Origin: Acidobacteriota bacterium | GTDB taxonomy: Bacteria > Acidobacteriota > Thermoanaerobaculia > UBA5066 > Gp7-AA6 | Assembly (NCBI GenBank): GCA_027307335.1 | Contig: DAHUXD010000051.1 | Location: 1-64,000 of the forward strand | Length of the DNA stretch: 64,000 bases | Direction: 5' to 3' | Part shown: one piece after another, positions 12,683 to 54,532 of the stretch | Numbering within the stretch: position 1 is the first letter of the stretch | How the letters are laid out: each line of letters begins with the position of its first letter | Translations under genes and position numbers: made by a program | The notes under the pieces: generated by a model | Databases searched by the model: none | Seen by the model: only the letters and a program-made list of their open reading frames with translations | Told to the model about the DNA's origin: nothing

Positions 12683-13382
12683 AGCAGTTCTCCTTCCCGC
12701 GCCAGAGCACGACGCCGCCGAGGAGCCCCTCGACGTTGGAGACCGTCTTCACGCGCGGCGGCAGCTCGAAGTCGATCCGGGCCGCGTTGCCGCCGCCGAT
12801 GTACAGACGGTCGTAGTTGAAGAGCTCCGACAGCGACGCGATCGCCTTGCGGACGCGCCGGTTCCACCGCTTTCGCCCGGCCTTCTTCAGGGCCTTCTTG
12901 CCGACCTCCTCCTCGTAGGTCCTGCGGCGCCAGGCGGCGTGGTGGGCGAGCTGGACGTTCGGCACGAGGCGGCCGTCGACGAAGAGGGAGGAGCCGAAGC
13001 CGGTCCCGAGCGTGATCACGAGCTCGACGCCCTGGCCGCGCACGGCGCCGAGCCCCTGCACGTCGGCGTCGTTGGCGGCGCGCACCGGCACGCCGAGCTC
13101 GCGCGTCAGGAGCCGGTCCACGTCCACGCCGATCCAGGAGGGGTGCAGGTTGAAGGCCGTCTCGACGACGCCCTTGCGCACCCCGCCGGGGAAGCCGACC
13201 GAGGCGCGGTCGTACGCGCCCTGCTGGCCGGCGAGGCCGAGGATCGCCTTCACGAGGGCGCGCGGCGTCGCCGGCCGGGGCGTCTCGACGCGCCGGCGCT
13301 CGCCCAGCGGCTTGCCGGCGTCGTCCACGACGAGCGTCTTGACGCCCGTGCCGCCGATGTCGATGCAAAGGGTCTTCGGCAT
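12669..13382 (-). CDS. ppgK: Polyphosphate glucokinase (ROK family)
   Basis: The protein has 237 residues. The ROK/ASKHA phosphate-1 motif [11 protein letters not shown] is followed by [16 protein letters not shown] (catalytic Asp) and the phosphate-2 motif [11 protein letters not shown]. The segment [20 protein letters not shown] is typical of PpgK rather than ordinary ROK kinases. It phosphorylates glucose using polyphosphate (and often ATP), giving substrate to the overlapping zwf. A PPK2 gene lies 35 kb away in the same window. Whether it prefers polyphosphate cannot be read from sequence alone. Confidence 0.88.
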
Positions 13383-50489: not shown

Positions 50490-50532
50490 GTCCGCATTCT
50501 GGCCGCGTCGTCGGCCGGCGTCTTTCTCTCGC

Positions 50533-50589
50533 GACCTCGGCCCGGCTGTGCCCGGCCCGAGGTCCCGGCGCGGCGTCTCCCCGCCGCGC
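50533..50589. repeat. Two-hairpin palindromic repeat, copy 1 (intergenic)
   Basis: Stem 1 is GACCTCGG (50533-50540) with CCGAGGTC (50557-50564). Stem 2 is GCGCGGCG (50568-50575) with CGCCGCGC (50582-50589) and loop TCTCCC. It lies between the convergent SulP and exported-repeat genes, touching the latter's TAA, so it may also terminate both. The same two-stem layout and much of the sequence recur at 53207-53269. Confidence 0.7.
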
Positions 50590-51342
50590 TTAGGGCTGCG
50601 GCGTCGGGACGGGCGCCGCCTTTGGCACGTCGCCGGGCGACGCCTGCACCGCGGAGGGAGGAGCCCAGGCGTCGCTGACGCCCGGCTGCCCCTGGTAGAG
50701 CCAGTTGCCCTGAGAGTCCTGCCCGGGCGCCGGCGCTCCCTGGGCCGGGGCCGGCTCCGCTCCGGGGATGACGGTCACGTTGCCGGTGCCCTCCATCGGG
50801 AGGTCGTCGATGCGGGCCGCGCCCTTCTCCTGCTGCTGGGCCTTGAACGCGTCGAGGCCCGTCAGCTTCGTGATCTTCGCGACGTCCGACTGGCGCAGGC
50901 TCATGAGATCGCCGCCGAGCCATTTCTTGAACGTGTAGGTCTTGCCCTTCAGCGCCGGCTCGCCGGCCGCGATGATCCTGCCCGACGGGACGAGGTCGAC
51001 CTGGTAGACGACTTCCGCGTTGAGGTCGTTGGTGCGCGGGTGGATGCCCTTGACCTTGTCCTTCGCGAGCTTCACGGTCGTGCGCTCCGGCCAGACCGTG
51101 AAGAAGTACGCGTTGCCGATCTGGCGCGGCTTGCCGATCGCGAACGCATGGCCCGTCGGGATCAGGTCGATCTGGTAGATCACGAGCGGCGCCTTCGGCG
51201 CGCCGTCGGGCGCGGGGGTCGGGGCGGCGGTGGACGGCCCTCCCTGGAGCGCGGGCGCCGGCTTTACGGGCTGGGCTTGGCGTGCGCCCAGGGGAGCGGC
51301 GGCCAGGACGACCGCGGTGAGCACACCGGTCCAGATTCTCAT
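50590..51342 (-). CDS. Exported protein with two related repeats, unknown
   Basis: I chose ATG 51340-51342 with GGAGG 8 bases upstream; the long track ORF is another frame of the next gene. The 250 residues have a signal peptide, then two related units: YQIDLIPTGHAFAIGKPRQI and YQVDLVPSGRIIAAGEPALK, each about 60 residues. A Pro/Ala/Gln-rich tail follows. No family is recognised. The repeat suggests an internal duplication of a small beta domain. Confidence 0.65.
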   Translation of the reverse strand: MRIWTGVLTAVVLAAAPLGARQAQPVKPAPALQGGPSTAAPTPAPDGAPKAPLVIYQIDLIPTGHAFAIGKPRQIGNAYFFTVWPERTTVKLAKDKVKGIHPRTNDLNAEVVYQVDLVPSGRIIAAGEPALKGKTYTFKKWLGGDLMSLRQSDVAKITKLTGLDAFKAQQQEKGAARIDDLPMEGTGNVTVIPGAEPAPAQGAPAPGQDSQGNWLYQGQPGVSDAWAPPSAVQASPGDVPKAAPVPTPQP

Positions 51343-51404
51343 GGAGAAGTCCTCCTCTGTTCCGAGATTCGCGAGCAGTGTACCCGGCGCGTCGCGAAAA
51401 AGAT

Positions 51405-53534
51405 CTAGTTCAAACGGATCGACAGCGCCACGCTCAGGATCTCCTTCGCGGCGAAGGGCTGCGAGCTCCAGGCGATCGTGGGCGCCTGGACGAGGATGTC
51501 GACGATCCCCGCGTTGAAGGCGATGCCGAGGCGCGAGCCGGCCTGGAGGTAGTACTGGCCGCCCGGCGAGCCGTGGACTCCCGGCGAAGTGTCGATCTCC
51601 GAGTCGCCGCGAACCTTGGGTCCGCCCTCGACGCGCACCGGCGTGAGCGACAGTCCCAGCACGCGGAGCGCGTACCAGCGCAGATCGAGCGCGAGGACGC
51701 CGGTGAGATAGGCCGAATCGCCCGAGGTCCGCCGCGCGCCGATCGAGAGCGAGCCGCCCGGCGCCCAGACGAACCGGCCGCCCCAGCGGTCCCGGTCCCA
51801 CAGGACCATGCCGTCGATCGACCCCGCTCCGTACGGCCGCCCTTCCACGACGAGGGACGGCGGTTCGACCGTCGTGACCGCGGTGCCGACGTACCAGCTC
51901 GCGGCCCTTCCCTCGAGCCGCCCGTAAGGAGCGTCCGGCGGGGACCACGTCTCGTCCGTCCTCTCGACCTTGTCGGTGTGATGACTGATGAGCGAGCCCC
52001 CGGCGAACCTCGGCGACGTCAGCGCCCAGCTCACGCCGAGGCCGACCGACCACTCGGCGGCGGGCTTGCGCCAGTCGATCTCGAGCGGACCGTGCAGCGT
52101 CAGCGCGAAACGATCGTTCACGATGTAGTCGAACCGGAAGAAGTCGGAGACGACCTCGGAGCCCGTCCCCTGGCCGCCGAACGCCACGCGCCAGGCCGCG
52201 GGCGTGAACCCGAGCGCCGCGCGCTTCCCGAGCGGAAGAGCGAGGTCGAGCTCGAGACCGGCGAGGCCCGCGCCCGAGCCGTCGTCGTAGTGGCGGTAGC
52301 CGAGCTCGCCCGCGAGCGCGTAGACGAAGGGATTCAGCTCCCAGCTGTACTTGAAGAGCGTTCCCTTCGCGGTGACGTCGAGGAACTTTCGCGTGACGTT
52401 GTACGTCGAGTCGAGCCCCAGGAAAGCGTAGGAGCCGGGAGACAGATCGGGCGGCTGCTTCTGCCGGCACTCGTCGCCCTCGCACGGATACGCCGCGGCG
52501 AACCAGCGTTCCTCGAATTCGCGCCACGCGGGGGACTGCTCCGGCGCCGGAGCCGACGCCGACGGAGCGGCCTTCCGGGACATGCGCAGCTCGCGCACGA
52601 CGACGAGCAACTCCACGATCGCCCGTCGTGCTCGGTCGCCGTCCTCCGAGAGGCACTCGAACGGGACCATGTAGGGGAAGTCGACGAGGTCCTTGCAGTG
52701 GCGGCCGCCGGCGACGACCTTCTCCTCGATCACGTAGGTCTTGTCCCGATGGTCGTCCCAGTTGTGGAACGCGGAGTCGGGGATCTTCGCGACCTTCTCC
52801 GGCGTCAGGCCTGGCAGGCGCGTCAGCGGCTTCCAGACGCGCAGCTCCTCGATCCCGCCGCCGTCGGGCCGGCGCTGCGTGTGGGCACCCGAGAACGAAT
52901 CGCCGACCGCGTGCATCAGCTCGTACAGCCCGTATCCGCTCTGGCGGGTGCCGGGCCCGCCGTCGAGAACGACCTGCCGCATCAGGTCGTCGAGGAGGTC
53001 CCGGCAGCGCACGAGGGCGGAGGTCGCGAGCGCGCGGGGGATCTCCGTGCCCTCGATCTTCTCGGAGTCGGCGTCATCGAGCTTCGCCATGAAGTGGAAG
53101 CACTGACCCGCGTCCGAGAACTGGCGCCGGAACGCGGCGTCGGGCTGGTCGGTCAGCGGCTTCGGCCAGTCGAGGAGGGGATTGGAGGCGGAGGCGTCTC
53201 CTTCTCGGAACTCCGGCCCGGGCTCAGTCGCCCGGCCCGAAGTTCCGACGCGGCGTTCCCTCGCCGCGTGGGCGCAGAACCCCGGCGGATGGCTGTCCCA
53301 CCCGAAGCAGAGCGGCGGCGCGAGGTCCCCGTCGTTGAGCAGATCGCGCAGAACGTCCGGCCGCGGCGGCTGGCCGTCGTCACCGTCGACGAGGCTGCGA
53401 TACACGAGCGCCTCGATCACGACGTGGCCCTTGCTGTCGAACGCGGCGGCGGAGGCGGAAAGAAGGATCGACGCGAGGACGAGCGCGAGGGAGCGCCTCC
53501 CCGGGCTCAAGCGGCCTCGATCCAACCCATCCAT
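51405..53534 (-). CDS. S1/P1-nuclease/phospholipase C-like protein with barrel-like C-terminal half
   Basis: I place the start at ATG 53532-53534, giving 709 residues with a signal peptide (LALVLASILLSASAAA) and a mature end FDSKGH. His/Asp ligands of an S1/P1 or zinc-phospholipase fold can be seen, notably ELMHAVGDSFSGAHTQR near 205-220 and DSAFHNWDDHRDK. From about residue 330 the sequence becomes strand-rich like an outer-membrane barrel (FLGLDSTYNVTRKF...LGLDLALPLGKR-like). The reading frame contains a palindromic repeat insert near residues 90-110. Catalysis is inferred, not proved. Confidence 0.65.
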   Translation of the reverse strand: MDGLDRGRLSPGRRSLALVLASILLSASAAAFDSKGHVVIEALVYRSLVDGDDGQPPRPDVLRDLLNDGDLAPPLCFGWDSHPPGFCAHAARERRVGTSGRATEPGPEFREGDASASNPLLDWPKPLTDQPDAAFRRQFSDAGQCFHFMAKLDDADSEKIEGTEIPRALATSALVRCRDLLDDLMRQVVLDGGPGTRQSGYGLYELMHAVGDSFSGAHTQRRPDGGGIEELRVWKPLTRLPGLTPEKVAKIPDSAFHNWDDHRDKTYVIEEKVVAGGRHCKDLVDFPYMVPFECLSEDGDRARRAIVELLVVVRELRMSRKAAPSASAPAPEQSPAWREFEERWFAAAYPCEGDECRQKQPPDLSPGSYAFLGLDSTYNVTRKFLDVTAKGTLFKYSWELNPFVYALAGELGYRHYDDGSGAGLAGLELDLALPLGKRAALGFTPAAWRVAFGGQGTGSEVVSDFFRFDYIVNDRFALTLHGPLEIDWRKPAAEWSVGLGVSWALTSPRFAGGSLISHHTDKVERTDETWSPPDAPYGRLEGRAASWYVGTAVTTVEPPSLVVEGRPYGAGSIDGMVLWDRDRWGGRFVWAPGGSLSIGARRTSGDSAYLTGVLALDLRWYALRVLGLSLTPVRVEGGPKVRGDSEIDTSPGVHGSPGGQYYLQAGSRLGIAFNAGIVDILVQAPTIAWSSQPFAAKEILSVALSIRLN
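53207..53269. repeat. Two-hairpin palindromic repeat, copy 2 (inside a CDS)
   Basis: Stem 1 is GGAACTCCGGCCCGGG with CCCGGCCCGAAGTTCC (two mismatches, loop CTCAGTCG). Stem 2 is ACGCGGCG with CGCCGCGT (loop TTCCCT). The order, spacing and orientation are those of copy 1. It is a 63-base (21-codon) unit read in frame on the minus strand, adding the segment RERRVGTSGRATEPGPEF to the S1/P1-like protein. Confidence 0.7.
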
Positions 53535-53620: not shown

Positions 53621-54532
53621 TCAAGCGAGGAGGGCGCATTCGGGCGGGAGCGCCAGCGTGAGGCGCTTCGGCAAAAGCTCGAATCGAAATCGCGTTCCCG
53701 AGACGGGTTCACCATCGAGGTTGATCTGGAGGGTCTCATCGGTCTCGACCTCGACCTGCGCCAGGCGCGCGCCGACGACCGCGTGTTGAATCGCGTCGGG
53801 GCCGTGACGAAGCAGCGCGCGCAGCGCATGCGGCACTTCGTCGTTCGGCAATTTGGGAAGGACCCGGACGTCCAGCAGTCCGTCGTCGAGCAACGCCTCC
53901 GGGCAGAGCGGATGGCCGCCGCCCGCCTGGCGCCCGTTGCCAATGGCCAGCACCAGGAATTCGCCTTCCCATCCGAATCCCGGGCCCCTCAGCCGTCCGC
54001 GTGAGGGACGGATGGAATTGAAATGAGTCAATCCGGTCAGGAGATAGGCCGCACCGCCGAGCAGGCGTTTTAACTCCGGTGGCGTCGCGGTCGTCAGCGA
54101 CGCGCCGAATCCGCCGGTGGCGACGTTGAGGAAAGGACGCCCATCGACGCGCCCGACGTCCACCCTCGCCTCGGATCCGGACACGGCCAGAAGCAAGGCC
54201 TCCGAAGGGTCGAGCGGGATTCCACAGGCGCGTGCCAGATCGTTCGCCGTGCCGAGGGGCATGATCGCCAGCCGGGGTGGTTTCCGGTCCGATGGCGCCA
54301 GGAGCCCGGCCACGACGCCGTTGACGGTTCCGTCCCCGCCGGCGGCGACGACGACCTCGAACCCCTCGCTCGCCGCGCGGCGCGCGAACCGCTCCGCGTC
54401 GGTCCCCTCCCAGGTGACCCCCACCTCGATCTCCAGAGCGTCGCCGCGGGCCGCTCCCACGGCCGCGCGGACGTCCTCCCGCCCGGCCGCCTTGCCGTTC
54501 AGAACGATGAATGCGGATCGGGCGAGGCTCAT
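53621..54532 (-). CDS. YegS/diacylglycerol-kinase-family lipid kinase
   Basis: I use ATG 54530-54532; the much longer track ORF runs antisense to the sigma-54 gene. The 303 residues carry the kinase glycine motif VVAAGGDGTVNGVVAGL, MPLGTANDLARA and VATGGFGASL, typical of YegS/BmrU/DgkB. It phosphorylates a lipid such as diacylglycerol or phosphatidylglycerol at the inner membrane. It is divergent from the sigma-54 activator gene. Confidence 0.92.
   Translation of the reverse strand: MSLARSAFIVLNGKAAGREDVRAAVGAARGDALEIEVGVTWEGTDAERFARRAASEGFEVVVAAGGDGTVNGVVAGLLAPSDRKPPRLAIMPLGTANDLARACGIPLDPSEALLLAVSGSEARVDVGRVDGRPFLNVATGGFGASLTTATPPELKRLLGGAAYLLTGLTHFNSIRPSRGRLRGPGFGWEGEFLVLAIGNGRQAGGGHPLCPEALLDDGLLDVRVLPKLPNDEVPHALRALLRHGPDAIQHAVVGARLAQVEVETDETLQINLDGEPVSGTRFRFELLPKRLTLALPPECALLA

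What the first reader, a model, noticed from the sequence alone, without database searches (positions are those of the whole stretch)
50533..53269. Two-hairpin palindromic repeat, one copy in frame inside a gene
Two copies 2.7 kb apart share the layout long stem, short gap, 8-bp GC stem, with similar loops, in the same orientation. Copy 1 is intergenic. Copy 2 is 63 bases (21 codons) inside the S1/P1-like gene and is translated as an Arg/Gly/Pro-rich insert. This recalls Rickettsia palindromic elements, which also enter coding regions in frame.
Basis: partly seen in the sequence, partly recalled or inferred. Interest (0 to 1): 0.6.

Follow-up and report, generated by a model that had tools for sequence, protein, structure and literature searches.

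The report
Two-hairpin repeat that invades genes
A 66-base DNA element that folds into two hairpins occurs about 120 times in this one bacterial genome and in none of about 395 other genomes of its phylum that were searched, and it has landed in frame inside conserved genes, adding about 23 amino acids to their proteins, much as palindromic elements do in Rickettsia.

Summary
The two copies belong to a family of about 120 copies at 103 sites in the window's own genome. The unit is about 66 bp: a pyrimidine lead, a long variable stem, then an abutting, almost invariant 7-bp stem with a 6-nt loop. The long stem varies widely but stays paired (94% of cells; 283 double-sided changes against 76 in shuffles). 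The model finds nothing in 18 other genomes of the order, 148 of the class or about 395 of the phylum. About 29 sites lie inside called ORFs. For four genes homologs show an in-frame insertion: 24 residues in the window gene, 23 in a PlsB-like acyltransferase, 23 in a PfkB kinase, about 28 in an RluD-like pseudouridine synthase. It behaves like Rickettsia palindromic elements and REPs, but has no GTAG or CGTC tag and no end-to-end inverted repeat. Best reading: a new, lineage-restricted family of non-autonomous palindromic elements, copied in trans by unknown machinery and tolerated in genes because it is nearly stop-free. Expression and mobility are untested.

The parts
50522..50588 (+). Copy 1 of the two-hairpin element (67 nt), intergenic; the 3' end lies 1 nt from the stop codon of the gene at 50590 (-)
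   Evidence: covariance model R1, 45.1 bits, E 3e-6; whole genome E 3e-5
50533..50564 (+). Copy 1, long stem (arms GACCTCGG / CCGAGGTC)
   Evidence: sequence; folds
50569..50588 (+). Copy 1, short stem CGCGGCG-TCTCCC-CGCCGCG
   Evidence: sequence; folds; nearly invariant in the family
53198..53268 (+). Copy 2 of the two-hairpin element (71 nt), antisense to and inside the ORF 51405-53534; read as part of the protein
   Evidence: R1 61.1 bits, E 2.4e-9
53198..53204 (+). Copy 2, pyrimidine lead CTCCTTC
   Evidence: sequence; the family has a pyrimidine-rich lead of 6-8 nt
53205..53248 (+). Copy 2, long stem (outer arms TCGGAACT / AGTTCCGA with inner mismatches)
   Evidence: fold
53249..53268 (+). 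Copy 2, short stem CGCGGCG-TTCCCT-CGCCGCG
   Evidence: sequence; fold
51405..53534 (-). Host gene of copy 2 (710 codons in my call; a longer start at 53639 is possible); unnamed family
   Evidence: ORF, codon-model call, ortholog in G005 with 63-64% identity lacking 24 residues; no Pfam match
50590..51342 (-). Gene whose stop codon TAA (50590-50592) abuts copy 1
   Evidence: ORF list; the stop is called; the ATG at 51342 is my choice

Best explanation
A lineage-restricted family of about 66-bp non-autonomous palindromic DNA elements. Shown: about 120 copies with sharp ends, single or in tandem arrays of 2-4; strong pair conservation in a variable long stem; a nearly invariant short GC stem; a mostly intergenic position although about 93% of the window is coding; in-frame insertion in four genes. 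Inferred mechanism: the element spreads as hairpin-forming single-stranded DNA (during replication, or by a host or transposon enzyme acting in trans), and tandem units then arise by slippage. Copies survive where they do least harm: just after stop codons, just upstream of the -10 box of short-leader genes, and in permissive spots of proteins (loops, linkers, the region after signal peptides). In genes they are tolerated because the GC-rich unit has few stops in any frame and in-frame lengths (69, 72 nt) occur. The arms change together, most likely because one arm templates repair of the other, or because variants come from several source copies. The insert most likely has no useful function in the host proteins.
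For: Copies and ends. Covariation: with sliding and shuffle controls; 38 different arm pentamers, and 98 of 108 copies keep the outer 6-bp arm with at most one mismatch. Few wobble intermediates (40 G-T, 60 A-C, 2363 Watson-Crick cells), which fits DNA-level templating better than slow RNA compensation. Insertion: PlsB-like protein, 23 extra residues against seven order-level orthologs, with the empty site readable at DNA level; RluD-like; PfkB; window gene. Absent from sister genera. In-gene copies pair as well as intergenic ones (0.936 against 0.940). Openness is explained by composition: 83 of 115 copies open in all six frames, 71% in dinucleotide shuffles.
Against: No mobilising enzyme found: the two Y1 transposase-like genes are not next to any copy and have their own flanking repeats. 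No target-site duplication beyond weak signals; a GAC repeat at the PlsB site is a single case. No genome of the same genus was available, so no polymorphic site was seen. The 3' end abuts stop codons far more often than placement within the gap predicts (17 against 2.7 expected), while the 5' end does not; plain selection does not explain this asymmetry.
Confidence: 0.72

Rival explanations
1. REP/REPIN-type element moved by a RAYT (Y1 tyrosine transposase): single-strand hairpins recognised by the enzyme and pasted elsewhere.
For: Two Y1_Tnp genes over the Pfam cut-off in the genome; hairpins, dispersed singles, sharp ends, no clear duplication. RAYTs are proposed to mobilise hairpin REPs (PMC3733652).
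Against: No GTAG tag at either end. One Y1 gene is flanked by a different pair of GTAG-type repeats and the other by GGGGTCAGGTCT terminal repeats. No copy lies within 3 kb of either gene.
Confidence: 0.25
2. A functional RNA or DNA signal (mRNA 3'-end protection, or a promoter-adjacent site) maintained by selection at gene borders, with the in-gene copies as strays.
For: Stem-2 end within 3 nt of a stop codon at 17 of 32 sites facing a stop. A -10-like box follows the 3' end of 17 of 41 copies facing a start, and 0 of 32 facing a stop. The minus strand folds better in 112 of 115 copies.
Against: Sits in both orientations between tandem, divergent and convergent genes. No run of T after the hairpin, so not an intrinsic terminator. 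Absent from sister genera. Few G-U pairs. Genes without a copy also have the -10 box at -12 to -17 and no -35 box, so a place upstream of -10 is simply free space.
Confidence: 0.12
3. A homolog of Rickettsia palindromic elements acquired by lateral transfer.
For: Same behaviour: palindromic and in frame in conserved genes, a pseudouridine synthase among them, as reported for RPE-1 in TruB (PMC3733652).
Against: Different length, architecture, ends and tags (PMC2229807).
Confidence: 0.02
4. Chance similarity of GC-rich hairpins; no family.
For: High-GC genome with many chance palindromes.
Against: Model R1 gives more than 100 hits here and none in about 395 other genomes of the phylum; pattern control 2 against 0.03; covariation controls.
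Confidence: 0.01

Closest known systems
Rickettsia palindromic elements (RPE)
   Same: Dispersed palindromic repeats, some read in frame in conserved genes; the host gene keeps its frame; restricted to one lineage.
   Different: RPEs are 105-146 bp with terminal inverted repeats (PMC2229807) and carry conserved peptides (PMC10969869). Here about 66 bp, two unlike adjacent hairpins, all six frames used by in-ORF copies, and a GC-rich genome with no RPE-type end structure.
GTAG and CGTC REPs, REPINs (PMC3733652)
   Same: Short palindromes with covarying stems, mostly intergenic and close to gene 3' ends, some in genes (20-30 residues), some units grouped.
   Different: No GTAG or CGTC tag with a single 20-40 bp hairpin; the unit is two unlike hairpins in fixed order; units in arrays are head to tail, whereas REPs favour inverted dimers.
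Caulobacter CerM-associated intergenic repeats (CIR)
   Same: Two separate stem-loops in one unit and no end-to-end inverted repeat (PMC2229807).
   Different: CIRs are about 110 bp, carry GANTC, have stops in all frames and are not found intragenically (PMC2229807).
MITEs with terminal inverted repeats (Correia/NEMIS, ERIC, RUP)
   Same: Non-autonomous, dispersed; some fuse in frame with genes.
   Different: Those have terminal inverted repeats and target-site duplications (PMC2229807); neither is seen here.

Membership tests
Rickettsia palindromic element | Dispersed palindromic repeat with copies inserted in frame in protein genes | tested here: met
   about 120 copies; four genes with insert-free homologs
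Rickettsia palindromic element | 105-146 bp with terminal inverted repeats, one long hairpin | tested here: not met
   about 66 bp, two hairpins; the ends are not complementary
Rickettsia palindromic element | Sequence similarity to an RPE family | not tested
   no RPE consensus was at hand; Rfam has no matching family
GTAG REP (RAYT-associated) | Unpaired GTAG at one end of the hairpin | tested here: not met
   ends are a pyrimidine tract and CGCCGCG
GTAG REP (RAYT-associated) | Copies flank a RAYT gene | tested here: not met
   two Y1_Tnp genes, no copy within 3 kb
CGTC REP | Terminal CGTC, 8-9 bp stem, 4-5 nt loop, CCA-like tail | tested here: not met
   CGTC occurs only at the internal junction on the minus strand; stem and loop sizes differ
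MITE with terminal inverted repeats | Terminal inverted repeats | tested here: not met
MITE with terminal inverted repeats | Target-site duplication | tested here: inconclusive
   weak 3-5 nt signal at one offset, near chance once tandem remnants are removed; GAC repeat at the PlsB site
CIR | Two stem-loops joined by a linker | tested here: inconclusive
   two stem-loops, but abutting
CIR | GANTC motif at a loop; not intragenic | tested here: not met
   copies lie in genes; the consensus loops TTC and TTCYCT hold no GANTC
Rfam RNA families | Covariance match over the gathering score | tested here: not met
   one chance match, mir-61, 23.9 bits against 77

The most novel reading that the evidence does not exclude
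A palindromic mobile element of a new class, two unlike hairpins moving as one unit with its own site preference (3' end next to stop codons and -10 boxes) and an unknown enzyme, that is generating protein insertions in a lineage other than Rickettsia.
Probability: 0.25. Interest if true: 0.75.

Novelty: new variant of a known kind. Interest (0 to 1): 0.52.

Why it matters
In-frame palindromic insertion was first described in Rickettsia, where it was taken as a possible source of new protein segments; intragenic REPs were later reported in other species. Here a family with a different architecture does the same in a compact, GC-rich genome, with readable empty orthologous sites in sister genera. 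That makes the question whether such inserts are neutral or useful testable gene by gene, and the covarying arms allow a test of how such elements keep their palindromes.

Tried and rejected
RAYT link by proximity: none. Target-site duplication: apparent 5-8 nt matches came largely from remnants of neighbouring units and are near chance without them. Special selection for open frames: openness equals dinucleotide shuffles. RNA-level selection through G-U pairs: wobble cells are rare and not clearly unequal between strands (40 against 60, P = 0.057). Rfam: nothing. Exact 25-nt stem-2 pattern in GTDB contigs: no match. Naming the window gene: no Pfam or PDB match; a genome-contig search for its relatives found none. 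PfkB orthologs in the order: none, so that insertion rests on PDB homologs only. A wider GTAG-REP family in the genome: pattern hits no better than the reversed control. The organism could not be named with the tools at hand.

Full report
Observation. By covariance model they span 50522-50588 and 53198-53268. A 25-nt consensus with up to 3 mismatches hits only these two places in the window, with 0.03 expected.

Family. A BLAST search of the own genome gave 48 matches. A model built from 17 copies with the two-stem structure (R1) gives 115 copies at E <= 1e-3. I read 120 of them with flanks: 103 sites, 89 single and 14 tandem arrays of 2-4 head-to-tail units. The unit is a pyrimidine-rich lead (6-8 nt), a TCG...CGA long stem with a 3-nt loop, then CGCGGCG-(6 nt)-CGCCGCG. 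The flanks show no strong consensus past the ends. The 66-nt copies average 75% identity.

Structure. On 119 distinct rows 93.9% of pair cells are standard pairs (82.0% in shuffles, 30-55% when slid by 1-3 columns), with 283 double-sided changes (75.8 in shuffles). The shuffle control does not keep relatedness, and A4 is fitted to the model, so I rely also on A3, which was aligned without structure and gives the same picture. Stem 2 is almost invariant and says nothing for or against pairing. Thirty-eight different pentamers occur in the 5' arm, and the outer 6 bp match perfectly in 62 and with one mismatch in 36 of 108 copies. Wobble intermediates are few: 40 G-T and 60 A-C against 2363 Watson-Crick cells. 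I infer concerted change of the arms at DNA level, or several source copies; this was not tested further.

Distribution. R1 finds no copy in two other genera of the family, 18 other genomes of the order, 148 of the class or 395 of the phylum (the larger searches use stricter filters). An exact stem-2 pattern finds nothing in GTDB contigs, where near relatives may be left out. No other genome of the genus turned up in the family search.

Insertion in genes. With a codon-model gene caller of my own (93% coding in the window), about 29 sites lie inside ORFs, in both orientations and all six frames. Several near the N-terminus may really be 5' leaders. Four genes have homolog evidence. Window gene: 24 extra residues against G005. 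PlsB-like acyltransferase (L108): 23 extra residues, with FDPxxx-RDxVFxPVG uninterrupted in the orthologs of seven genomes of the order, and the DNA showing CGG GAC | ATC GTC interrupted by 69 nt. RluD-like pseudouridine synthase (L110): about 28 extra residues against nine orthologs, and extra residues at the same place against E. coli RluD. PfkB kinase (L061): 23 extra residues against PfkB-2 structures. In three proteins (L053, L058, L122) the copy sits just after a likely signal peptide (by eye). In-gene copies keep their pairing (0.936 against 0.940). Openness in six frames equals dinucleotide shuffles, so the tolerance follows from composition.

Position between genes. Seventy-four sites are intergenic. 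Where the 3' end faces a stop codon, it lies within 3 nt in 17 of 32 cases, against 2.7 expected for uniform placement in the same gaps. Where it faces a start, a TAnnnT box lies 5-19 nt past it in 17 of 41 cases, against 0 of 32 facing stops. Genes of this genome without a copy show TAgaaT-type boxes most often 12-17 nt before the start and no -35 box, so the space upstream of -10 looks free. The stop-codon contact of the 3' end only, and not the 5' end, remains unexplained.

Mobility. There are two Y1 transposase-like genes. One (L161) has GGGGTCAGGTCT-type terminal repeats and the other (L160) a GTAG-type inverted pair; no copy lies near either. No target duplication is convincing. The mover is therefore unknown.

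Comparison. RPEs (PMC2229807, PMC10969869), tagged REPs (PMC3733652) and CIRs (PMC2229807) are the nearest kinds; each fails at least one defining feature here (see the membership test). It works like an RPE; it is not shown to be one. The REP survey reports REPs in pseudouridine synthase genes of several species, and RPE-1 in TruB of R. conorii (PMC3733652); the RluD-like case here is a parallel.

Limits. The taxon is unnamed. Gene starts are approximate. Translation, activity and movement are inferred. The counts of ORF-internal sites rest on my own gene caller.

Noticed in passing
own genome, stretches L041-L135 and the window: Many genes look leaderless or short-leadered: TAgaaT-type -10 box about 12-17 nt before the start codon, no conserved -35 box.
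   Followed up: partly
L160 and L161 (G000:C60:53529-53840, G000:C16:106995-107315): Two RAYT/Y1 transposase-like genes, one with a GTAG-type inverted repeat pair, one with long terminal repeats TGGGGTCAGGTCTCTGAAAGTGTGACTTT.
   Followed up: partly
L179:66-145, L181:7835-7939, L184:391-472 and 13198-13261, L185:15451-15532: A sister genus (G002) carries a different short dispersed GC-rich repeat, GACCGCGGAGKACCGCGGCCGTCTCGCTCCCGTTGGTCGCTCGGCTCCCG.
   Followed up: no
all intergenic sites facing a stop codon, for example window 50588-50590: The stem-2 end, not the other end, sits 0-3 nt after stop codons at 17 of 32 sites; unexplained.
   Followed up: partly
L053, L058, L122: In three genes the insert lies just behind the probable signal peptide.
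   Followed up: no
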